A stretch of 64,000 nt of DNA from Pseudovibrio sp. M1P-2-3 (lineage in GTDB: Bacteria; Pseudomonadota; Alphaproteobacteria; Rhizobiales; Stappiaceae): contig NZ_JARRCW010000001.1 in NCBI RefSeq assembly GCF_031501865.1, forward strand, positions 1,943,001 through 2,007,000, read 5' to 3'. Made by a program: the position numbers and the translations under genes. Below the pieces are notes generated by a model that saw only the letters and a program-made list of their open reading frames with translations, was not told where the DNA came from and did no database searches. Positions 3,719 through 58,523 of the stretch are shown in pieces (the stretch's first letter is position 1; every line of letters begins with the position of its first letter).

Positions 3719-3973
3719 ATGATTAAGGCGGGTTTGAGCATTCGGGGCGCATACGGCATAAATGCCGTAGTAGCTGTTCTCGTTGGTTTCTTGTTAGCGC
3801 TGCCGCTGCTTCTTAATCTGACTGCGCTAATTGATGGAACCAGTATAAAAAATGCCTATTTGGGGGTAGGGGTATGCATCGCAGTTATTGTTTACATCAG
3901 GGTGCTGCATGCCCTTCATAACGCGGTGTCTCATCGTAAACCGTCTGAGACAAAATCAGCGCAAGATATTTGA
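3719..3973 (+). CDS. small two-helix membrane protein, 84 aa
   Basis: Two hydrophobic segments (about residues 14-37 and 48-64) are separated by a short polar loop (IDGTSIKNA). The C-terminus is charged (HRKPSETKSAQDI). I recognise no family. The coding status is supported by a diverged second copy immediately downstream (4271-4363 plus 5733-5835) that keeps the same hydrophobic pattern, so this was once a tandem gene pair. No clear Shine-Dalgarno sequence precedes ATG 3719. Confidence 0.55.
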   Translation: MIKAGLSIRGAYGINAVVAVLVGFLLALPLLLNLTALIDGTSIKNAYLGVGVCIAVIVYIRVLHALHNAVSHRKPSETKSAQDI

Positions 3974-4441
3974 CAATAACTGTTGTTTTTGGGGGGGACG
4001 GGTGTTTTGTCTCGGGCAGGCCTGCCGATGAGTTTTACAATTCCAAAGTAGTCCCCGCAACTACTTAAAGGGTTACTATGGAATCTCTCTAGCCATTCGC
4101 ATGGAAATGGCAAGAGAACAAGAGCAACAGGCATCTCAACTTGGTGGATAATACAGGTAACCAAAGTGTGGTTACTAGTTTCATATCTATGGAATAATCT
4201 CTAAAAATTCCATAATTAAATTGGCATACTCGTATCTCTAAGAGTTTATTAGTATACATTGCACCGCTCATTCGTTTCCTTTTAGTGCTGTCGTTGCTTC
4301 CTAGTCTGACTGCTCTGAATGATGGAAGCCGCGTAAAAACTGCCTATTTCGGGGTAGGGTTATGATGGAATGGATGCCTCTCCCGGCGCATTTCTGCAAT
4401 ACTGAGCAGAGTGTAGCTTTTGGAAAAAGAGGGACGCAACC

Positions 4442-5470
4442 ATGAAGAACCTTGCCGTTGTTGGAGTTGATTTATCAAAGAACGTTTTTCAACTGCATGG
4501 AGCCGCTGCAGACGGACATGTCGTGTTTTCAAAGAAGGTTTCTCGTGCGGGTTTTTTGAAGGCTTTGGGTAAGCTGCCAACTTGTCTTGTCGCAATGGAG
4601 GCTTGTGCGAGTTCCCATTATTGGGGAAGAGAGGTGGGAAAGCTGGGGCACGAGGTTCGCTTGATTGCGCCGATTTACGTCAAACCCTTTGTTAAGCGCC
4701 AGAAAAACGACGCCAACGATGCTTTTGCCATTGCCGAAGCCGCCGCCCGTCCCACCATGCGCTTTGTGGAGGTCAAAAGCGAACTTCAACAGGCCCGTTC
4801 GATGGTGTTCCGCACCCGTGAGATTCTGGTGCGCCAGCGAACCCAAATGATTAACGCGCTGCGGGCGCATTTGGCCGAACATGGACTGGTCGTCCCTCAT
4901 GGCGCGGTCCATGTTGAGAAGCTGAGGCAGCGTCTTGAAGCGGATGGGGGACATCTTCCTGAGATTGTTCATGAAATGGCGAGGTTGTACTTTGAACAGA
5001 TTGGCGAGCATACGCAAAAGATTAAGGTGCTTGAGAAAAAACTTCAGACATTGGCCAGAAACAGTGGTACGGCAAAAATTCTGCAAACCATTCCCGGGCT
5101 CGGCCCAATCACCGCGATAGCGATAGAGGCTTTTGCCCCCGCAATGGCCACGTTCAAGCGCGGGCGGGATTTCGCCGCTTGGCTGGGCCTGGTTCCCAAG
5201 CAGCACTCAACGGGGGGCAAAACGCGGCTTGGGAAGACGTCTAAAGCCGGCCAGCGTGATATTCGCAGGCTGCTGATTATTGGCGCGACAACAGTTATTT
5301 GGTGGGCCCGCAAAAAAGGCGCGCCCCGGCATCCGTGGCTTGAGGCCTTGCTGGCAAGAAAAGCTCCTCTGGTGGCCGCTGTGGCGCTGGCAAATAAAAT
5401 GGCGCGAACAGTATGGGCAATGATAACAAAGGGAGAAACCTATCGAGATCCGGCAAGCATGGCTGTGTGA
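4442..5470 (+). CDS. IS110-family transposase (IS1111 group), 342 aa
   Basis: DEDD-type recombinase. The N-terminal RuvC-like domain shows Asp10 (GVDLS), Glu53 (AMEACAS), Asp90 and Asp93 (KNDAND). The C-terminal Transposase_20 domain has the helix-hairpin-helix-like IPGLGPITA near residue 218 and the conserved serine region PKQHSTGGKTRLG near 260-272, which includes the catalytic serine in the family. Length is normal. RBS-like GAGGGACGC lies just before ATG 4442. The protein is about as diverged from the two other IS110 transposases here as they are from each other, so these are three separate elements rather than recent copies. In this family the enzyme acts with a bridge/seek RNA encoded in the same element (see 5571-5676). 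Confidence 0.93.
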   Translation: MKNLAVVGVDLSKNVFQLHGAAADGHVVFSKKVSRAGFLKALGKLPTCLVAMEACASSHYWGREVGKLGHEVRLIAPIYVKPFVKRQKNDANDAFAIAEAAARPTMRFVEVKSELQQARSMVFRTREILVRQRTQMINALRAHLAEHGLVVPHGAVHVEKLRQRLEADGGHLPEIVHEMARLYFEQIGEHTQKIKVLEKKLQTLARNSGTAKILQTIPGLGPITAIAIEAFAPAMATFKRGRDFAAWLGLVPKQHSTGGKTRLGKTSKAGQRDIRRLLIIGATTVIWWARKKGAPRHPWLEALLARKAPLVAAVALANKMARTVWAMITKGETYRDPASMAV

Positions 5471-5570
5471 ACGTGGCTTGTCTCGTCGGTAAGCCGGGAG
5501 GGATTGCAAGGGACATCTGACAGTTAAGGACCCAGGATCACTAAGATCGGATCAGGAAAACCAGTTTGCG

Positions 5571-5676
5571 ACACGGAGCTTTGAGCTCGTGGTTATGATA
5601 TTGGACCTGATCGGCGCTTATCCATAACGGCCCGCGAGGACAAAATCTTGCAAAAAGGCCTGATACACGTGCGCAC
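5571..5676 (+). ncRNA. candidate bridge/seek RNA of IS1111-group element no. 1
   Basis: In the noncoding right end: hairpin GAGC-TTTGA-GCTC (5576-5588), then GGTTATGAT (5591-5599), then the conserved ATTGGACC, the core CCATAACGGCCCGCG (5622-5636), and AGGCCTG followed by ATACACGT (5663-5670). GGTTATGAT recurs exactly at this element's left junction (4358-4366) and ATACACGT at its right junction (5729-5736). The same layout with different guide segments is present in the other two elements. RNA ends are not determined. Function is inferred from knowledge of IS110 guide RNAs. Confidence 0.75.
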
Positions 5677-5844
5677 TTGATCCCATGGTTTTTACGTCTG
5701 AGTAACTCTCGCATTGACTAAGGCATCCATACACGTCGCAGTCATTTTATACATCAGGGTGTTGCATGCGCTTCATAACAAGGCCTCTCATAGTCGAGCG
5801 CCTTTGAGGCAAGCTGGAAAAGGTAGGTGAAGCTATGAGGGGAG

Positions 5845-13517: not shown

Positions 13518-13551
13518 TATGAGGGCTTCAATTAATTATAGTCTTGAGCCT

Positions 13552-14157
13552 TTATACTGAAACATATCCAGCTGCCTTGAAGTAATTCCAACACTCTTGG
13601 GGTGTGAACAGATCGCATATGTCACCCAGAGCCTTTATCAAGGTCTCAAAGGTTCTGGCTTTCATTCTGCGTAGGTGTGCTTTGAGCTTGGAAAACGCCA
13701 TTTCGATAGGATTGAGATCAGGAGAATAGGGCGGCAGAAAAAGGAACCAACACCCGCTTTGTCTGAGGGCCCTTGCGGCTTCTGGAACTTTGTGTGTGGA
13801 CAGGTTATCCAGAATGACCACCGTTTTAGGGTGCAAGCATGGAGCCAGTTGTGTCGTGATATAAGTGGTGAATGCCTTGCCATTCATGGCCCCGTCCAGA
13901 ACCCAGGGCGCAATGAGTCCCTCGTGGGTCAAACCGGCGATAAAGGTCTGGTTCTGCCAGCGTCCAAACGGCGCTGTGTCAAGGGCTCGTTCCCCTTTAA
14001 AGGCTCGGCCTCGCAGCCGGGTTAAATTCGTTTTAACACTGGTTTCATCGAGAAACACCAGTCTCTCAGGCAGATCACGCATTATAGGCTGACGGGTGTG
14101 GCGCCATTCATCTCTGGCATTTTGTACATGGAGTTTGCCACGCTCGGTTGCCACCAA
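13552..14157 (-). CDS. IS630 transposase, catalytic part (OrfB)
   Basis: DDE superfamily domain: [12 protein letters not shown] (first Asp), [11 protein letters not shown] (second Asp) and [16 protein letters not shown] (the Asp/Glu of the third position). It is in the overlapping frame after OrfA, so the true product is probably an OrfA-OrfB fusion made by frameshifting at the A run near 14160; the nominal start at 14157 is arbitrary. The 201 codons are identical to those at 35668-36273, indicating very recent transposition. Confidence 0.88.
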
Positions 14158-14510
14158 CGATTTTTTTTATAGGTGTAGCCAAGACGGCGCAAAGCCTTGG
14201 AGACGGAAGTATGGTGAACCCTCACTCCCTCAGCCATGAAAAGTGCATCACATAACTCCATCAACGTGATATCTCCGTCTTGATTGACCAGCTCGCGCAA
14301 GAAGGAGAGGTAGGGCTCCAATTTTCCGCCTCCCTTTGGGCGCCCTGTCCTGACCGGGATTAAACTCTGCCCCTCCCGAACTTTACGGGCCAAGCGAGAT
14401 CCTGATGCTGGAGAGATCAGCAGGCGGCGTGCTGCTTCACGCCCGCTCATCCCGGATAAAATGAGCCTTTTAAAGCGAAGGCGTAAATCAAGTGAAAGTG
14501 GCCGACCCAT
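14082..14510 (-). CDS. IS630 transposase, upstream part (OrfA), 142 aa
   Basis: Helix-turn-helix half of the IS630 transposase: [15 protein letters not shown], then [24 protein letters not shown] and a second HTH ending [19 protein letters not shown]. It ends in a run of A residues (TATAAAAAAAAT on the coding strand), the typical slippery site where ribosomes shift to the catalytic frame (13552-14157). GGGAGGAGATCAC provides a strong RBS before ATG 14510. Identical in sequence to the protein at 35315-35743. Confidence 0.88.
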
Positions 14511-14592
14511 GTGATCTCCTCCCTAAAAGGAGTGAATCACAAATCAACCTGATTGGGAATCCCCAATCGATTCAGCGTTGCGCCTCATTGCT

Positions 14593-15819
14593 TTAGCTGG
14601 CGTTTCCGCTTTTCGGGGGACTGGAACGCCTCTTTTTGTTTCTGGTACTTGAATGGCGCTCCACAGGCTCTCCTTGTTCGCAAAGAACAGTGGATCTGCC
14701 GTTAAAGGCAAGCGCTACTTCACCGTTTTTGAGACGCAGGGCATCGGCTCCGAAAATTTCCTTACGCCAGCCTTGGAGTACGGCAATTTCAGTGTCATCT
14801 CCAGATGCGATCTTCTCAAGGTCGTCAACCGTAGCGATAACTTTTGGTGCCACCCCAAACTGTTCGCACTTCATCTTCAGCAGAACTTTTAGAAGGTCGA
14901 CAGCTGCTGATGCCCCATCAGGAGCAGGTCTTCCTTTCGGAAGTTCAGGAAGCTCTTCTTGAGGAATCTGAAGGCCAGCGTGAACAGCGTTGAGGATATC
15001 CTCAGCATATTTTGAGCGCTCTAAACCCTTTGGTATCGACCGTAGGTGGCCAAGTCGTGTTGTATCTCTGGGCTGCTGAATTGAGAGCTCAAATATTGCA
15101 TCGTCTTTGAGGACGCGGCTTCTGGGCATGTTGCGTCTTTGGGCTTCTTTGTCACGCCACGCTGCCAGCTCTTTTAGAACTGCGAGTTCACGGGGCTTGC
15201 GTACCCGAAGCTTCATGCGTTTCCACGCCTTTTGAGGGTCGGAAATGTAAGTATCCTTGGACGTAAGGGTCTTCATTTCGTCTTCAACCCAGTGGGTCCG
15301 ATTCTTTGTCTCTAACTCTTTACGCAGATGATTATAGATATCACGCAGGTGCGTTACATCGGCTAGAGCGTACTCCAACTGTTTTTCAGTGAGTGGGCGT
15401 CTGGACCAATCCGTAAAACGGGAGGACTTATCAATTCTGTTGCCGGTGACTTTCTGGACGAGTTGATCGTAGGAAACAGAATCACCAAAGCCACAGACCA
15501 TTGCAGCAACCTGACTGTCGAAAAGCGGGCTTGGAACAATTCCGCCAAGGTGCACAATAATTTCGACATCCTGCCGAGCCGCATGAAATACCTTGGTTAC
15601 ATTTTGGTTTTTCATCAGCTCGAAAAAAGGCTCCAAGTCCAGATTTTCTGCCAATGCGTCAACTATAAAGGCTTCTTCAGGGCTTGCCATCTGTATGAGG
15701 CAGAGCTTTGGCCAGAATGTTGTTTCGCGCAGAAACTCTGTGTCGATTGTGACAAACTCAAAGCGAGCGAGACGAGTACAGGCTTCTTGAAGCCCTTTTG
15801 TTGAAGTGATCATATTCAT
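14593..15819 (-). CDS. rnd: ribonuclease D
   Basis: 3'-5' exoribonuclease acting on tRNA precursors and other structured RNA. 408 aa. DEDDy exonuclease motifs: FVTIDTEFLRE (Asp/Glu, about residues 23-33), VFHAARQDVEII (about 76-87), and YALADVTHLRDIY with the catalytic Tyr and Asp (about 149-161). An HRDC domain follows (about 215-290, LAAWRDKEAQRRNMPRSRVLKDDAIFE). ATG 15819 is the first in-frame start; ATG 15813 is equally possible and no good RBS decides. IS630 copy 1 sits exactly at its TAA stop codon; removing it leaves AGC TAA unchanged, so the protein is not truncated. Divergent from aspS. Confidence 0.94.
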   Translation of the reverse strand: MNMITSTKGLQEACTRLARFEFVTIDTEFLRETTFWPKLCLIQMASPEEAFIVDALAENLDLEPFFELMKNQNVTKVFHAARQDVEIIVHLGGIVPSPLFDSQVAAMVCGFGDSVSYDQLVQKVTGNRIDKSSRFTDWSRRPLTEKQLEYALADVTHLRDIYNHLRKELETKNRTHWVEDEMKTLTSKDTYISDPQKAWKRMKLRVRKPRELAVLKELAAWRDKEAQRRNMPRSRVLKDDAIFELSIQQPRDTTRLGHLRSIPKGLERSKYAEDILNAVHAGLQIPQEELPELPKGRPAPDGASAAVDLLKVLLKMKCEQFGVAPKVIATVDDLEKIASGDDTEIAVLQGWRKEIFGADALRLKNGEVALAFNGRSTVLCEQGEPVERHSSTRNKKRRSSPPKSGNAS

Positions 15820-35012: not shown

Positions 35013-35314
35013 AGGCGACACGCTCTAAAACCAATGGCCGGATGCGTTGGCAAAAGCAGACGGGCTACGGCCAAAGGGCGCGAGCAGAAACCCTGATGGG
35101 CCGCTATAAACAAGTGATCGGCAACAAACTCAGATCACGAAAGCTGGAAAATCAAAGAACGGAGGTGCAAGTCGGTGTCGTCGTTCTTAACAAAATGACC
35201 GCACTCGGACGACCCTCGTTCGAGCGCATTAAAGCACTGAGGCGCAACGCTGAATCGATTGGAGATTCCCAATCAGGTTGATTTGTGATTCACTCCTTTT
35301 AGGGAGGAGATCAC

Positions 35315-35743
35315 ATGGGCCGGCCACTTTCACTTGATTTACGCCTTCGCTTTAAAAGGCTCATTTTATCCGGGATGAGCGGGCGTGAAGCAGCACGCCG
35401 CCTGCTGATCTCTCCAGCATCAGGATCTCGCTTGGCCCGTAAAGTTCGGGAGGGGCAGAGTTTAATCCCGGTCAGGACAGGGCGCCCAAAGGGAGGCGGA
35501 AAATTGGAGCCCTACCTCTCCTTCTTGCGCGAGCTGGTCAATCAAGACGGAGATATCACGTTAATGGAGTTATGTGATGCACTTTTCATGGCTGAGGGAG
35601 TGAGGGTTCACCATACTTCCGTCTCCAAGGCTTTGCGCCGTCTTGGCTACACCTATAAAAAAAATCGTTGGTGGCAACCGAGCGTGGCAAACTCCATGTA
35701 CAAAATGCCAGAGATGAATGGCGCCACACCCGTCAGCCTATAA
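35315..35743 (+). CDS. IS630 transposase B copy 2, upstream part
   Basis: Identical 142-aa product to 14082-14510, with the same strong RBS (GGGAGGAGATCAC) and the same A8 slippery run at its end. Confidence 0.88.
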
Positions 35744-36273
35744 TGCGTGATCTGCCTGAGAGACTGGTGTTTCTCGATGAAACCAGTGTTAAAACGAATT
35801 TAACCCGGCTGCGAGGCCGAGCCTTTAAAGGGGAACGAGCCCTTGACACAGCGCCGTTTGGACGCTGGCAGAACCAGACCTTTATCGCCGGTTTGACCCA
35901 CGAGGGACTCATTGCGCCCTGGGTTCTGGACGGGGCCATGAATGGCAAGGCATTCACCACTTATATCACGACACAACTGGCTCCATGCTTGCACCCTAAA
36001 ACGGTGGTCATTCTGGATAACCTGTCCACACACAAAGTTCCAGAAGCCGCAAGGGCCCTCAGACAAAGCGGGTGTTGGTTCCTTTTTCTGCCGCCCTATT
36101 CTCCTGATCTCAATCCTATCGAAATGGCGTTTTCCAAGCTCAAAGCACACCTACGCAGAATGAAAGCCAGAACCTTTGAGACCTTGATAAAGGCTCTGGG
36201 TGACATATGCGATCTGTTCACACCCCAAGAGTGTTGGAATTACTTCAAGGCAGCTGGATATGTTTCAGTATAA
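35668..36273 (+). CDS. IS630 transposase B copy 2, catalytic part
   Basis: Identical 201-aa frame to 13552-14157 with all three catalytic acidic motifs ([23 protein letters not shown]). Reached from the upstream frame by slippage. Confidence 0.88.
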
Positions 36274-37275
36274 AGGCTCAAGACTATAATTGTTTAGTCC
36301 CGCGAGCAGATGGTGTGGTTGTTTTATAAATCTGTCCGACTCTTGTGTCCATTGTCTGGTAATATAGTCGAAGGGTGTTTGTCCTTTGAGAGCCTTGAGG
36401 CGTTTGGCGAAGTTATAGGCCTGAATAAATGTGTCCAGATGGGCTCTTAGTTCGTTGTGTGTGCGGTAATAGTAGCGCCGAACGGTTGCTTCTTTAAGGG
36501 TTCTGTTCATGCGCTCGACCTGGCCATTTGTCCACGGATGGGCTGGTTTGGTAAGCCGGTGGTCAATGTCATTTTGGGCACAAGCCAGAACAAATGCATG
36601 AGCACGAAACAACTGGCCTGTTGTGAGCAAATGTTGAACCTCACTGGCGTTCCAGCTGTACCCTTTGGGGTCAGTGAACTGGGTGCCGTTATCGGTCAGC
36701 ACGGTATGGATCTTGTAGGGAACCGCTTCAATAAGGGCCCGCAGAAAGGTACTGGCAATCCTTCTGGTGGCTTTTTCAAAGAGTTTGACAAAGGCGAATT
36801 TTGAGGTTCGGTCAATGGCAACGAACAAATAGAGCTTGCCTTCTTGCGTACGAACCTCAGCAATATCAAGATGAAAGTAACCAATTGGATAGGCTTTGAA
36901 GCGTTTCTTGTTCGCTTTCATATCCGGTGGTGGCAGGCGCGAAATCCCATGGCGCTGGAATAAGCGATGCAGGGACGAGCGGGTCAGACGCGGGATCGTT
37001 TCCTGCAGGGCGTAAAGGCAGTCATCGAGTGGCAATAAAGAGTGCTTGCGAAAAGCGACACACGCCGCTTCTTCTGCCACGCTCAGGACTGTGGAGCGGG
37101 GATTCTTCCGCCCCATAGGTTGATCTTCCACGCTATTGCGATGTTTCCACTTCATCACTGTTTTGGGATTGATGTTATAACGCCGGCTCAACTCTTTGAT
37201 GGTTGCATCCGATTTTTGTATGGCTGATCGAACCGCGTGAGTGGTCGTGGCGCTGCCGTGTAATACCTGTCCCAT
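36265..37275 (-). CDS. IS481-family transposase
   Basis: N-terminal HTH ([21 protein letters not shown], about 22-42), then an rve/DDE integrase core: [10 protein letters not shown] (Asp), [12 protein letters not shown] (Asp) and [19 protein letters not shown] (Glu). Start ATG 37275 (MGQVLHG) with GGGAGGACTT upstream. The frame has no stop inside the element: it runs through the terminal repeat at 36291 and stops in the IS630 end at 36265, adding a short foreign tail. This is common for the family and probably harmless. Confidence 0.9.
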
Positions 37276-40398: not shown

Positions 40399-40569
40399 CA
40401 TCGGTAGAAAAAGAAACATCAAATAAGACCATCACAGTTGGAACGGAAAATCATCGACCAAACTGACCTGCCGTTACTGCCACCTCAAAGGCGTTAGGTG
40501 GGTCAGGCCGGACGTATATGGACACCCCCGATATGCAAGCAGTGATTTATGAAACTTTGGAAGGTGAGG

Positions 40570-40686
40570 TCAGGCACTGACGTATATTCGGCCTCTATTT
40601 GCGACCTTACTCCGTCGCGGGCCCCTATGGAGATCCGTCGAACCGGTCCAATTCGCTTACGCGCACTTTAAATGTGCTCCGTCCGG
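40570..40686 (-). ncRNA. candidate bridge/seek RNA of IS1111-group element no. 3
   Basis: On the minus strand: hairpin GCAC-ATTTAAA-GTGC, then GTAAGCGA (40653-40660), ATTGGACC, the core CCATAGGGGCCCGCG (40616-40630), AGGCCGA and ATATACGTC (40579-40587). GTAAGCGA recurs at the left junction (41867-41874) and ATATACGTC at the right junction (40511-40519). Layout as in elements 1 and 2. Confidence 0.75.
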
Positions 40687-40773
40687 CAGTGGTTTTCCGG
40701 TTCTGTCTCAATGACCATTTTCCTTAGCTTCTTCGGTCCTGCTCACATAGCTTATCAGGGAGCATTGCCATCT

Positions 40774-41796
40774 TCAGCCGATAGCAGCCTCCCGATAAGA
40801 TTCTTTTGTTTGCAATAAAGCCCAGACAATACGGGCCATCTTGTTGGCAAGGGCGACAGCCACCAGCATAGAAGGTTTACGGTCCAACATCCGTTGCAAC
40901 CATGCCCCCTCACGGGCACCGCGCAGCTTGGCCCACCGGACCACTGCCATTGCCCCGGTAATCAGAAGGCGCCGAATATCTCTTTGTCCCATCTTGGAGG
41001 TGCGTCCCAACCGCTCCTTACCTCCACTGGAAAACTGTTTGGGAGTTAGACCGAGCCAGGCAGAAAAATCTCTTCCCTTTGTGAAGGTTTCAGGCGGCGG
41101 CGCAAACGCCAGAATGGCAGATGCGGTGATCGGGCCGATACCAGGAACTGCCATCAAACGTGTCGCAACTTCCTCCTTTTCGGTTGTTCGGTTGATAGCC
41201 TTCAGGAGCTCATCAATTTTCTCCTGCAGGCTCACAATCTGATCGAGAAGCATATGACTATAGCTCACAACCGTTTCTGGCAGGTCCTGCCCCTTTGTTT
41301 GGAGCAGTTCTCGCAATGCCTTGAGATGAACAATCCCTTTTGCTGCAAGCAGACCATGCTCTGCCAGATGCGCCCGCAAGGCATTAATCGTTTGCGTTCG
41401 CTGGCGCACAAACAGATCCCGGGTTTTGAAAGCCATACAGCCTCCCTGCTGTTCACTGCTTTTGACGGCAACAAAGCGCATGGTTGCGCGGGAGGCTGCC
41501 TCCGCAATGGCCTCAGCATCTACTGCATCATTTTTCTGCCGTTTGACAAACGGTTTCACATAGACGGGAGGAACCAGTTTTGCCTCATGGCCGAGGCGGT
41601 TAATTTCCCGCGCCCAGTAATGAGCGGTCGCACAAGCTTCCATAGCCACAACAGTCGGGGGCAAGCTTTCTAAAAATGGCAACAGTTTTGCTCTGGAGAG
41701 TTTTTTGCTGAAAATCGGTTTTCCACTCTTGTCGGCACCATGTGCCTGAAAAACATTCTTAGCCAGATCAAGTCCTACTATGTAAAGTTCTTTCAT
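40774..41796 (-). CDS. IS110-family transposase (IS1111 group), 340 aa
   Basis: DEDD residues visible: GLDLAKN (Asp10), AMEACATAH (Glu), KNDAVDAEAIAE (two Asp). The C-terminal domain has VPGIGPITASAILAFAP and LTPKQFSSGGKERLG with the serine region. Full length. Preceded by AGGAGGCGTCC, a strong RBS. Acts with the candidate RNA at 40570-40686. Confidence 0.93.
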   Translation of the reverse strand: MKELYIVGLDLAKNVFQAHGADKSGKPIFSKKLSRAKLLPFLESLPPTVVAMEACATAHYWAREINRLGHEAKLVPPVYVKPFVKRQKNDAVDAEAIAEAASRATMRFVAVKSSEQQGGCMAFKTRDLFVRQRTQTINALRAHLAEHGLLAAKGIVHLKALRELLQTKGQDLPETVVSYSHMLLDQIVSLQEKIDELLKAINRTTEKEEVATRLMAVPGIGPITASAILAFAPPPETFTKGRDFSAWLGLTPKQFSSGGKERLGRTSKMGQRDIRRLLITGAMAVVRWAKLRGAREGAWLQRMLDRKPSMLVAVALANKMARIVWALLQTKESYREAAIG

Positions 41797-43888: not shown

Positions 43889-43965
43889 GATAACGTACAA
43901 TATTTTTCGCATCTGTGGATGCCCCGTGTTTTGCAAGTTGTTTTTCGAGCAATTTTGGCATGTGA

Positions 43966-44082
43966 TCGGTTGCGGTCATCTGTCAGGCCTCGTTGTGCGG
44001 CGCTGCATTTGCCGCGGGCCGGTATGGAGATACGCAACTTGGCTCCAATACACATTTGCGGGCTTTTTGCCCGGTGCGAAAG
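43966..44082 (-). ncRNA. candidate bridge/seek RNA of IS1111-group element no. 2
   Basis: On the minus strand: hairpin CGGGC-AAAAA-GCCCG (44059-44073), then GCAAATGTG (44051-44059), TATTGGAGCC, the core CCATACCGGCCCGCG (44013-44027), AGGCCTG and ACAGATG (43977-43983). GCAAATGTG recurs at the left junction (45278-45286) and ACAGATG at the right junction (43910-43916). Confidence 0.72.
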
Positions 44083-44170
44083 ACTGGTTATGCCAAGTCG
44101 GATCTAGTCGATCGTTTACCCTTACTGCTCAAAGCCCTCCTCACATCCCGACGGACCTGTCCTGAAGCAC

Positions 44171-45196
44171 CTATTTAGCCGGGGACAGGTTTCGGTAGTC
44201 TTCATCTTTGACCAACATAGCCCACAATCTACGAGCCATTTTGTTTGCAAGCGCGATAGCCACCACCATACTTGGTTTTCTTTCAAGCATTCTTCCAAGC
44301 CATAAGCTTTCTGGCCTCCCCGTCCGCCGGGCAGCACCAATGAGTGCCATAGCTCCGATGATCAAAAGCCTTCGGATATCGCGCTGGCCCATTTTCGAGG
44401 TTCGGCCCAAGATCTGCCTTCCCCCTGTTGAATATTGTTTTGGCACAAGCCCCAGCCATGCGGCAAAGTCCCGCCCTCGGCGGAACGTGCTCATTGATGG
44501 GGCAAATGCTGTAACCGCCATGGCCGTTATCGGCCCTATTCCGGGCATGGTTTGCAATCTTTGCGCAGCCTTGTCCTGGTTCGCTTCTATTCGAAGCTGC
44601 TTTTCCAGGGACTGGATCCGGTTTGTGAGCAGTGCAATTTGCTCCAGGTAGATCTGACCGAGTTGAAGCACCACAGGAGGCAGGTCACTGTTCGGAGCAT
44701 TCAAAGCCTCAGCCAGTTTCTTAACGTGTATCGCCTTTCTTGGTGCGAGGCAGCCAAACTCAGCCAAATGAGCTCTCAAGGCGTTGATCAACTGAGTACG
44801 TTGACGTACAAAAAGATCGCGGCTACGGAATAACACGGCGCGACTTTGCTGATCCTTTGATTTTATCGGAACCGTACGCATTGTGGGGCGCGACGCTGCT
44901 TCCGCAATGGCTTCCGCGTCAGCTGCATCGTTTTTTTGACGTTTTACAAATGGTTTCACATAGATTGGGGGAATCAATTTAACATCATGCCCCAGAGCGC
45001 GAATTTCTCGCCCCCAACTATGGGCAGTAGCGCAAGCTTCCATTGCCACAACACAAGGTTCTTGTTTGGCAAAGAACGGTAACATCTGCCCGCGTGACAA
45101 TTTCCGTCGAAATAAAACCTTGCCGTCTGGTGCCGCACCATGAGCTTGAAAACTGTGCTTTGCCAAATCTAAACCTATAATGCTAACCTCTGCCAT
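44171..45196 (-). CDS. IS110-family transposase (IS1111 group), 341 aa
   Basis: DEDD residues in GLDLAKH, AMEACATAH and KNDAADAEAIAE; C-terminal MPGIGPITAMAVTAFAP and LVPKQYSTGGRQILG with the serine region. Start ATG 45196 (MAEVSIIGLD) after GGGAAGGGACATCC; the longer frame to 45304 runs through the element end and is not used. Works with the candidate RNA at 43966-44082. Confidence 0.93.
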   Translation of the reverse strand: MAEVSIIGLDLAKHSFQAHGAAPDGKVLFRRKLSRGQMLPFFAKQEPCVVAMEACATAHSWGREIRALGHDVKLIPPIYVKPFVKRQKNDAADAEAIAEAASRPTMRTVPIKSKDQQSRAVLFRSRDLFVRQRTQLINALRAHLAEFGCLAPRKAIHVKKLAEALNAPNSDLPPVVLQLGQIYLEQIALLTNRIQSLEKQLRIEANQDKAAQRLQTMPGIGPITAMAVTAFAPSMSTFRRGRDFAAWLGLVPKQYSTGGRQILGRTSKMGQRDIRRLLIIGAMALIGAARRTGRPESLWLGRMLERKPSMVVAIALANKMARRLWAMLVKDEDYRNLSPAK

Positions 45197-45329
45197 GGAT
45201 GTCCCTTCCCAATCTTCGATTGCTTCAATCGTAAATATGGCACATTGCGATGCCGCCGGGTGGGGCATCCACTCCATCACATTTGCTGTTGAGTTCGGTT
45301 CCACTCACACTGGATGAGGGGATCAGATT

Positions 45330-56648: not shown

Positions 56649-58523
56649 TTAGTTTTTCGCCCACCAATTATCATATTGATACCCATAAATAGGTGTGTAC
56701 TCTGGGTGAGAGACGTTTTGCCATCTACCTACCCACTCCGCTGGATTATGGTACAAGGGGATCGCATAAAAGCCGGAAATAAGCACTCGATCGAAGGCGC
56801 GAACAGAGTCAATAAATTCCTGCTTGGTACGTGCCGCGACTATTTTGCTGGTTAACTCGTCTATTGCTGGATCCGATGCGCCAACAATATTGCGTGAACC
56901 TTTTGTTTTTGCTGCTGATGATGACCAGCGAGAGTACTGTTCGGCTCCAGGAGACAAGGATGACCACCAACGATTAAAGAGCATCTCAAACTCGAAATTG
57001 GCTCGTCTTTGTTCAAATTGAGAGGCATCTACTGTTCGTATCACCATGCTAATTCCAATGCGCTCCATAATGCGTTGTAGTGAAAGTGCCACGCGCTCTT
57101 CTTCTTTTTTGCGCACCAGTAATTCGAATTCTAACGGCGTGCCGTCCTTGGCATCAACCATTTGTCTATTTTTAAGGGTGTATCCGGCTTTCCTGAGAAG
57201 GTTTATTGCTTCGTGGAGCACTTTTCGGTCATGGCCACTTCCATCCGTTTCAGTTGGAAACCATGTGCCATTTAATATGTTTTCTGGAATTTGGCTGGAG
57301 TAGGGTACTAATAAAGCTCTCTCCCGTTTACTTGCAGGTCTACCGATTGAGGATAGCTCTGAATTGTCCCAGTATCCGGCTGTACGAGCATACACTCCAT
57401 TGAATAGAGTTCGGTTGATGAATTTAAAGTCAAGAAGTAGGCTAAGGGCTCGCCGTACGTTTTTATCATTGAACTTATCTAGTCTGGTATTGAAGGCAAT
57501 GCCATCCATGTTGGCAGGTGTTTTTTTCTCGAAAACTTCCTTAAAAACCCGTCCCTCTTGAAAAGCTGGGAAATTAAATCCATTCACCCAAAAGTTTGGA
57601 CTCTCAAATTGCATGGCATACACGTCGCCTTTTTTGAAAGCTTCGTGTAAAGCATTACTGTCACGGTAATAGTCAATGATAATTTCATCAAAATTATCAA
57701 AACCAATTTTGACAGGTAGATTTTTGCCCCAATAGTTTGGGTTGCGTTTGTAAACAATGCGCCTCCCAGGCTGAACTTCGGAAACAGTGTAAGGGCCGGA
57801 CCCAAGGGGAGGGGTTAGAGTAGACTGATCAAAGGTTTCCACATTAGTGGCTGCTTTTGAAAAAATTGGGGCCAATGAAATAAGCAATGGTAGTTCTCGA
57901 TTATTTCCATCTTTGAAATGTAGTTTGACTGAACGTTCACCCGTCTGTTCAAATTTTGTAATTTGCTTATACCAGCCAGAATACGGTGGCCTTCCTTTGT
58001 CCCGCAAAAGCTGGAGGGAAAAAATAATATCTTCAACTGTAATTGGTGTCTTATTGGAAAATTGGGCGGCTTGGTTAAGTCTAAACTCAATCCAGTTTCT
58101 TGTATCGGGCATGCGGACAGATTCTGCAATATGAGCATAAAGGCTGAAAGCCTCATTGCTAGAGCGCATGAGCAAGCTTTCAAAAATATTGCTTCCCATT
58201 TGGCGCTCTTTCATTCCTCTAGCTGTGGTCCATGCTCCTTTGAGTATAAATTGGTTTAAACTGTCGAAGGTACCTTGAACACCAACCTTCATTTGCCCAC
58301 CTTTGGGCGCATTGGGATTAGCGTAAGGTAAGTGAGGAAAGTCCGCGGGTAGGGCTGGTTGACCATGCATTGCTATTGCGTGAGACCAAGCGATACGTTC
58401 TTCGGCATGAGATATAGAGCAAAAAAACAAAAAAAAGGAAAAGATCAACAACTTTAAGAAAACAGTTTTTAATAGAAAATATTGATATATAGATTCTCGG
58501 CGAACACCGTACAAAATAGGCAT
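56649..58523 (-). CDS. family 5 extracellular solute-binding protein (YejA-like)
   Basis: 624 aa. Signal peptide with hydrophobic core LLIFSFFLFFCSI and cleavage after SHA (about residue 40). Mature features resemble the YejA/microcin C-type branch: AMHGQPALPADFPHLPYANPNAPKGGQMKVG near 50-80, FNTRLDKFNDKNVRRALSLLLDF near 345, FNRWWSSLSPGAEQYSRWSS near 510. Family members deliver peptides to an ABC importer. No permease or ATPase gene is adjacent, so its transporter must be encoded elsewhere or IS activity removed it. ATG 58523 is preceded by GGAGGTTTT. Confidence 0.88.
   Translation of the reverse strand: MPILYGVRRESIYQYFLLKTVFLKLLIFSFFLFFCSISHAEERIAWSHAIAMHGQPALPADFPHLPYANPNAPKGGQMKVGVQGTFDSLNQFILKGAWTTARGMKERQMGSNIFESLLMRSSNEAFSLYAHIAESVRMPDTRNWIEFRLNQAAQFSNKTPITVEDIIFSLQLLRDKGRPPYSGWYKQITKFEQTGERSVKLHFKDGNNRELPLLISLAPIFSKAATNVETFDQSTLTPPLGSGPYTVSEVQPGRRIVYKRNPNYWGKNLPVKIGFDNFDEIIIDYYRDSNALHEAFKKGDVYAMQFESPNFWVNGFNFPAFQEGRVFKEVFEKKTPANMDGIAFNTRLDKFNDKNVRRALSLLLDFKFINRTLFNGVYARTAGYWDNSELSSIGRPASKRERALLVPYSSQIPENILNGTWFPTETDGSGHDRKVLHEAINLLRKAGYTLKNRQMVDAKDGTPLEFELLVRKKEEERVALSLQRIMERIGISMVIRTVDASQFEQRRANFEFEMLFNRWWSSLSPGAEQYSRWSSSAAKTKGSRNIVGASDPAIDELTSKIVAARTKQEFIDSVRAFDRVLISGFYAIPLYHNPAEWVGRWQNVSHPEYTPIYGYQYDNWWAKN

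What the first reader, a model, noticed from the sequence alone, without database searches (positions are those of the whole stretch)
4358..5736. Guide segments of a bridge/seek RNA readable in IS1111-group element 1
In the noncoding right end, GGTTATGAT (5591-5599) equals the left junction (4358-4366: six chromosomal bases plus the first three element bases). ATACACGT (5663-5670) equals the right junction (5729-5736: the last four element bases plus four chromosomal bases). Each lies at a fixed place: one right after a hairpin and before ATTGGACC, the other right after AGGCCTG. This is what an RNA-guided IS110 recombinase predicts, and the matched site is independently known here because the interrupted gene has an intact paralogue at 3719-3973.
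Basis: partly seen in the sequence, partly recalled or inferred. Interest (0 to 1): 0.9.

Follow-up and report, generated by a model that had tools for sequence, protein, structure and literature searches.

The report
RNA guides in an IS1111 jumping element
This mobile DNA element carries a small RNA whose short stretches spell out where it inserts, mainly the ends of another jumping element; the mechanism was already described in 2024, and this is a clear new natural example of it.

Summary
The element (4363-5733) is an IS1111-group member of the IS110 family. Its right-end non-coding region encodes a predicted bridge/seek RNA.

GGTTATG (5591-5597) is the left target guide. ATACACG (5663-5669) is not a target guide: it is the left donor guide, matching the element's own right end plus the core.

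Together the target guides spell GGTTA-TG-TCGCAAA, close to the terminal inverted repeat of IS6-family elements. Five of nine full copies in the host genome lie beside IS6 sequence.

Across 31 non-redundant elements, guides match their own flanks at 10.1 of 13 positions against 5.2 for swapped flanks; 0 of 20,000 permutations reach this. Donor guides are exact in 27 of 30.

Against a strict reading: all nine copies carry GGTTA, but only two sit at GGTTA. The window copy is also 2 bp out of register with its paralogue.

The mechanism is known (PMC11187229, PMC11208160): a new member of a known kind.

The parts
4363..5733 (+). IS1111-group insertion sequence, 7 nt outside the left and 3 nt outside the right subterminal repeat; 9 full copies in the host genome
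4358..4362 (+). left target half-site GGTTA (chromosomal), followed by core TG 4363-4364
4370..4379 (+). left subterminal inverted repeat ATGGATGCCT
4442..5470 (+). 342-aa DEDD recombinase, IS110 family RNA-guided transposase
   Evidence: PF01548, PF02371; NF033542 E 1.5e-93
5531..5710 (+). predicted bridge/seek RNA region (model R1 trained on it; hit 5535-5711)
5550..5556 (+). 5' arm of target-loop stem GATCAGG
   Evidence: conserved with compensatory changes
5606..5612 (+). 3' arm of target-loop stem CCTGATC
5576..5588 (+). hairpin between the two target guides (GAGC-TTTGA-GCTC)
5591..5597 (+). left target guide GGTTA plus core TG
5621..5625 (+). candidate right donor guide TCCAT, complementary to ATGGA at the left element end (4365-4369); CCAT is invariant in 30 of 30 RNAs, core part does not match
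   Evidence: not tested by permutation
5629..5660 (+). donor-side hairpin closed by invariant GGCC/GGCC (30 of 30 sequences)
5663..5669 (+). left donor guide ATACACG = last five element bases ATACA plus core
5714..5719 (+). TTGACT, candidate -35 of a promoter formed in the circular form (17 nt to TGGAAT across the joined ends)
   Evidence: inferred
5721..5730 (+). right subterminal inverted repeat AGGCATCCAT
5734..5735 (+). right core CG (TG in the other 8 full copies)
40538..40717 (-). bridge RNA region of the second IS1111 element; right target guide TGCCGGACG 40680-40688, left target guide CGTAAGCG 40654-40661
43935..44114 (-). bridge RNA region of the third IS1111 element; right target guide TCTTTCGCA 44075-44083, left target guide GCAAATGTG 44051-44059

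Best explanation
The element is an IS1111-group member of the IS110 family. Its downstream non-coding region encodes a bridge/seek RNA that tells its DEDD recombinase which target to join to which donor. One internal loop holds a right target guide (5564-5573, pairs with the target top strand) and, after a hairpin, a left target guide (5591-5597, pairs with the bottom strand). Together they spell GGTTA-TG-TCGCAAA, which fits the terminal inverted repeat of IS6-family elements. A second, multiloop part holds the left donor guide (5663-5669), which pairs with the joined ends of the element's circular form. Recombination at a shared 2-nt core inserts the element without a target duplication. Shown here by sequence: guide-flank covariation, guide-end covariation, RNA structure conservation, target identity, and the single-core join at IS6 ends. 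Inferred from the literature: transcription of the RNA, RNP formation, the circular intermediate and the strand chemistry.
For: Recombinase family. Subterminal repeats and a 263-nt downstream non-coding region. Guides at a fixed place (one-base play allowed, core left out) in 31 non-redundant elements: own flanks 10.13 of 13 against 5.18 swapped, 23 of 31 own and 4 of 930 swapped at 10 or more, 0 of 20,000 permutations. Own flank strictly the best in 24 of 31, tied in 1, beaten in 6. Donor guide exact in 27 of 30 against 100 of 870 swapped pairs, 0 of 20,000 permutations, both with a motif anchor and with fixed alignment columns. Structure: 18 of 24 pairs with a compensatory change in at least one sequence. 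Nine full copies: 10-13 of 14 target positions match. In the host genome the guides of the three window families match own flanks at means of 9.8, 10.3 and 10.3 of 12, and other families' flanks at 2.5-5.2. IS6 transposase beside copies; uninterrupted IS6 ends such as GGTAGTGTCGCAAAGTTTGG.
Against: The left guide GGTTA is identical in all nine full copies, yet only 2 of 9 left flanks are GGTTA; 4 of 9 are GGTAG. The GGTAG mismatches are not G:U wobbles. Copy L008 is imperfect on both sides (5 of 7 and 7 of 9). The donor-guide core CG fits only the window copy; the other 8 copies have TG. The window copy keeps its gene's frame only with two more bases than the single-core join gives. The RNA fold of the single sequence is unremarkable (z -1.43). 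No Rfam family matches at gathering score. Six of 31 elements are matched better by another element's flank.
Confidence: 0.95

Rival explanations
1. The matches are chance short repeats between a flank and a non-coding region.
For: Some 9-mer spanning the left junction occurs in 39 of 5000 resampled regions, and some 8-mer at the right junction in 94 of 5000, so the two strings taken alone are not overwhelming.
Against: Same fixed place in 31 non-redundant elements with different targets, 0 of 20,000 permutations; nine copies in one genome with 10-13 of 14 matches.
Confidence: 0.01
2. One reading: the second segment (ATACACGT) is the guide for the right side of the target, so the RNA holds one guide per junction and no separate donor guide.
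For: In the window copy the 8-nt string spans the right junction exactly.
Against: The segment covaries with the element's own right end (ATACA, ATATA, ACAGA, ACAAG) and is exact in 27 of 30 elements. A separate right target guide lies at 5564-5573 and matches TGTCGCAAA fully in 6 of 9 copies.
Confidence: 0.02
3. The protein itself reads the target DNA, and the look-alike stretches in the non-coding region are remnants of earlier targets carried along with the element.
For: Junction-derived sequence can be captured by mobile elements in principle (recalled).
Against: Guides sit in a conserved RNA loop with compensatory stem changes. The right guide is the reverse complement of its half-site while the left guide is in direct sense, as RNA pairing to the two strands requires. 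For IS1111 relatives the RNA is shown to be needed and reprogrammable (PMC11187229, sections read).
Confidence: 0.02

Closest known systems
IS1111-family elements with a seekRNA: ISEc11, ISPa11, ISKpn4, ISPst6 (PMC11187229; abstract, part 1 of section 5, sections 8-10, 12, 13 and passages read)
   Same: Downstream non-coding region, subterminal repeats, 7/3-nt extensions, top-strand-pairing guide 5' of the bottom-strand-pairing guide, insertion without target duplication.
   Different: Different target (IS6-family terminal repeat). A donor guide is identified here by covariation; the parts of that paper that I read speak only of target matches in the RNA. Everything here is sequence evidence only.
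IS110 bridge RNA of IS621 and its predicted IS1111 counterparts (PMC11208160, PMC11208158; passages read)
   Same: Target loop with left and right guides, donor guides, core included in the pairings; donor-binding bases of IS1111 RNAs predicted to lie in a multiloop, as found here.
   Different: RNA lies in the right end, not the left end; core is NG (mostly TG, CG or AG) instead of CT; right donor guide is only partly matched here.
IS4321 and IS5075 (title of Partridge and Hall 2003 seen in the reference list of PMC11187229)
   Different: Their targets are Tn21-family transposon ends; here IS6-family ends.

Membership tests
IS110 family, IS1111 group | DEDD RuvC-like N-terminal domain plus Transposase_20 C-terminal domain | tested here: met
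   PF01548 E 2.1e-17 and PF02371 E 2.1e-22; NF033542 'IS110 family RNA-guided transposase' E 1.5e-93; 342 aa, within the 330-350 aa range stated in PMC11187229
IS110 family, IS1111 group | Individual catalytic residues (DEDD, serine) | not tested
   Only domain-level matches and an alignment to IS621/ISCro4, strong over the C-terminal half only
IS110 family, IS1111 group | Subterminal inverted repeats with asymmetric 7/3-nt extensions | tested here: met
   10-nt repeats 4370-4379 and 5721-5730; extensions fit the IS6 empty sites
IS110 family, IS1111 group | Long non-coding region downstream of the recombinase gene | tested here: met
   263 nt between the gene and the end of the right repeat
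[quoted passage not shown]
Bridge/seek RNA | Donor guide matching the joined element ends | tested here: met
   Left donor guide exact in 27 of 30; right donor guide only CCAT conserved, not permuted
Bridge/seek RNA | Conserved RNA structure | tested here: met
   18 of 24 pairs with compensatory changes in 30 sequences
Bridge/seek RNA | Transcribed, bound to the recombinase, needed for movement and reprogrammable | not testable with these tools
   Needs wet-lab work
IS110 family, IS1111 group | Circular intermediate without target duplication | tested here: inconclusive
   No duplication at IS6 ends, and L003 opens a reading frame only with one core; the window copy fits its paralogue only with two more bases; the circle itself was not observed

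The most novel reading that the evidence does not exclude
In the window insertion the two half-sites were read independently and out of register. The pre-insertion gene probably read GGTTA-TG-CG-TCGCAG: its frame is open across the junction only if both cores are kept (or an equal two bases are added). The left guide (GGTTA-TG) and right guide (core plus TCGCA) would then each have fixed the cut on its own strand, with cores lying side by side instead of overlapping. If so, bridge-RNA recombinases tolerate a 2-bp spacing change between target halves, an unlooked-for class of off-target insertion.
Probability: 0.12. Interest if true: 0.55.

Novelty: new member of a known kind. Interest (0 to 1): 0.36.

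Why it matters
It is a clean natural replicate set for RNA-guided IS110/IS1111 targeting. One alphaproteobacterial genome holds several such elements in many copies with identical guides, so mismatch tolerance in nature can be read off directly: the left guide is loose and the right guide strict for element 1, and the reverse for element 3 (some copies of element 3 share the same flanks, so they may not be independent).

It also shows an RNA-guided element whose guides spell the ends of IS6-family elements. Insertion there places the element inside the terminal repeat of its victim, and one IS6 copy was hit at both ends. The donor guide identified here supports the view that IS1111 RNAs carry donor as well as target information.

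Tried and rejected
Chance was rejected by permutation. ATACACGT as a right-target guide was rejected by donor-end covariation. They remain as good a fit as the two-core reading for the window copy's own reading frame (81 aa for both).

Led nowhere: Rfam (no match); a pattern search for an uninterrupted GTAG...TCGCAAA target in the own genome (10 matches, fewer than the 30 of its control, none with the exact spacing); an orthologue of the interrupted gene in 16 genus genomes (only the own genome matched). A promoter spanning the joined ends is weak as a general claim: best scores averaged 6.8 of 12 against 6.1 for shuffles, although by eye a CTTGC motif stands in 30 of 31 right ends. The single-sequence fold is not significant.

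Selections: of 79 loci, 69 were given to the end finder and 10 (L089, L090, L093, L097, L102-L105, L110, L111) left out by judgement as near-duplicates or fragments. 52 of the 69 plus elements 1 and 2 of the window gave usable ends (54); the third window element was added by hand (55). L081, whose left end looks misplaced, was kept in the 31. L043 was left out of the RNA alignment and the donor test because it lacks the donor-loop anchor (30 of 31 used). The motif anchor itself asked for A[CT]A, so one search repeated the test with fixed columns and gave the same 27 of 30. Element fragments L010-L013, L019 and L020 were not counted among the nine copies; five have a left end: GGTAG in L010, L012 and L019, GGTAA in L013, and GGCTC in L020, a more distant fragment. 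Protein relatives in plasmids were listed but not used.

Full report
What is there. The window holds a 342-aa recombinase gene (4442-5470) with both domains of the IS110 family (PF01548 and PF02371; NF033542). It has 10-nt subterminal inverted repeats and a 263-nt non-coding region downstream, the anatomy that PMC11187229 gives for the IS1111 family. The host is probably a Pseudovibrio: a locus titled P. stylochi (L036) shows the same printed stretches as L116 from a genome of the window's own genus.

Copies in the host genome. The element has nine full copies (L001-L009; L002 is the window copy) and several fragments. All nine carry the same three guide strings. Taking the 7-nt/3-nt extensions of IS1111 elements, the left flank reads GGTAG in 4 of 9, GGTTA in 2, and GATAG, GTTTA and GATTG in 1 each. 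The right flank reads TCGCAAA in 6 of 9. The core is TG on the left in 9 of 9 and TG on the right in 8 of 9; the window copy has CG on the right.

What the guides are. The RNA is predicted to fold into a target loop and a donor part. In the target loop the 5' strand holds GTTTGCGACA (5564-5573), the reverse complement of TG-TCGCAAAC. After a hairpin, the 3' strand holds GGTTA-TG (5591-5597). The order, top-strand guide first, is that reported for IS1111 seekRNAs (PMC11187229, section 9). The guide-encoded target GGTTA-TG-TCGCAAA matches the nine copies at 10-13 of 14 positions, taking the better of the two cores; a random site has a chance of 3.4e-4 of reaching 10. Six copies with an imperfect left match have a perfect right match; the two with a perfect left match have a poorer right one; L008 is imperfect on both sides.

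The target. Right flanks of L001, L004, L006, L008 and L009 are homologous to IS6-family elements (5 of 9; in L008 the homology begins some 20 nt beyond the junction). The transposase next to L004/L011 is IS6 family (NF033587 E 4.8e-72, PF13610), and that IS6 copy was struck at both ends, by the full copy L004 and the 169-bp remnant L011. Ends of IS6-like copies in the genus read, among other forms, GGTTC, GGTTT, GGTTG or GGTAG followed by TGTCGCAAA, so the element inserts 7 nt inside the IS6 terminal repeat, without duplication. L003 lies in a KAP NTPase gene whose frame is open across the site only with a single core (133 aa against 80). L002 (window) lies in a small gene with a paralogue at 3719-3973. 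L005 and L007 are unassigned.

Test across elements. From 79 relatives, 69 were examined. With the three window elements, 55 sets of ends were obtained and collapsed to 31 with distinct guides. At one aligned place in the RNA, with a one-base play and the core excluded, guides match their own flanks at 10.13 of 13 positions and other elements' flanks at 5.18. 23 of 31 own pairs reach 10, as do 4 of 930 swapped pairs. No permutation in 20,000 came near (best 209 against 314 observed). Own flanks were strictly best for 24, tied for 1 and beaten for 6. By position, of the seven right-target bases the six nearest the core match in 23-29 of 31 and the outermost in 11; of the six left-target bases the five nearest the core match in 24-29 of 31 and the outermost in 16.

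Donor guide. The seven bases two positions after the second invariant GGCC equal the last five element bases plus the right core in 27 of 30 elements (0 of 20,000 permutations; and, with fixed alignment columns, 69). Many elements share a donor string (11 distinct strings), so 100 of 870 swapped pairs are exact too. Among the five with differing left and right cores, four carry the right-hand core (W1, L071, L101 and L081, whose left end is doubtful) and one (L085) neither. It agrees with the statement in PMC11208160 (passage) that many IS1111 RNAs place potential donor-binding bases in a multiloop. The opposite donor guide is weaker: CCAT, complementary to ATGG, is conserved, but its core part does not match.

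Structure. In 30 aligned RNAs, 18 of 24 predicted pairs have a compensatory change in at least one sequence. A model built from them finds the three RNAs of the window, with one weak further hit at 56759-56822 (15 bits), and gives 35 hits in the host genome. The window RNAs were in its training set, so their hits are not independent. For the second and third window elements, 4 of 5 and 8 of 9 RNA copies have both ends readable and show the same rule: own flanks 10.3 of 12 for both, other families' flanks 2.5-5.2. The third element's left guide is matched perfectly in 8 of 8 copies while its right guide varies; five of these eight share one right flank, so they may not be independent. The first element shows the reverse tendency.

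What does not fit. The left guide GGTTA differs from GGTAG at two bases next to the core, and these are not wobble pairs. The donor-guide core CG differs from the TG core of eight copies. For the window copy, the interrupted gene stays open across the junction for longer if two more bases are retained than the single-core join gives (81 aa against 63), for example both TG and CG, a site of GGTTA-TG-CG-TCGCAG; this may be an out-of-register insertion or a later 2-nt change. No sister genome held the empty site.

Known or new. RNA-guided targeting by IS1111 and IS110 elements was published in 2024 (PMC11187229, PMC11208160, PMC11208158; sections and passages read, none in full). IS1111 elements that strike the terminal repeats of other mobile elements are also known (IS4321/IS5075 and Tn21, by title). 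In three literature searches (listings only; one search listed 20 of 59 papers) I saw no report of an IS1111 element guided to IS6-family ends, nor of one in Pseudovibrio; that is not proof of absence. The finding is therefore a well-supported new member of a known kind.

Noticed in passing
window 40774-41796 (-) and 44171-45304 (-): Two further IS1111 elements, each with its own target guides matching its own flanks; of the third, 8 copies with both ends readable in the genome all have a perfect left-guide match (GCAAATG-TG).
   Followed up: yes
L190-L193 (host genome), RNA model hits: A more distant IS1111 family in the same genome (about 47% identical recombinase) with a bridge-like RNA and a shared stretch TGGCAATGCC at the right end or flank; left end not found by my end finder.
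   Followed up: partly
L052, L057, L072, L091, L094: Relatives in other alphaproteobacteria have targets like GGCTCTGT-TG-CACAAATCGG; DDE transposase domains (DDE_Tnp_1_5, DDE_Tnp_1) lie beside L052 and L094, so they may also strike ends of other insertion sequences.
   Followed up: partly
Right ends of 31 elements: A CTTGC motif stands at a nearly fixed distance from the right end in 30 of 31 elements and could be the -35 box of a promoter made when the ends join in the circle; the window element has TTGACT at 5714-5719.
   Followed up: partly
L004 and L011 (host C1:2063380-2064203): One IS6 copy carries this IS1111 element and a remnant of it in its two terminal repeats, in mirror orientation.
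   Followed up: partly
window 13534-14595 and 35230-36291: A perfect 1062-nt inverted repeat pair, probably two copies of one insertion sequence; could mediate inversion.
   Followed up: no
L036 / L116: A Pseudovibrio stylochi relative shows no recognisable bridge RNA loop after a recombinase match that ends at residue 322; it looks like a decayed copy.
   Followed up: no
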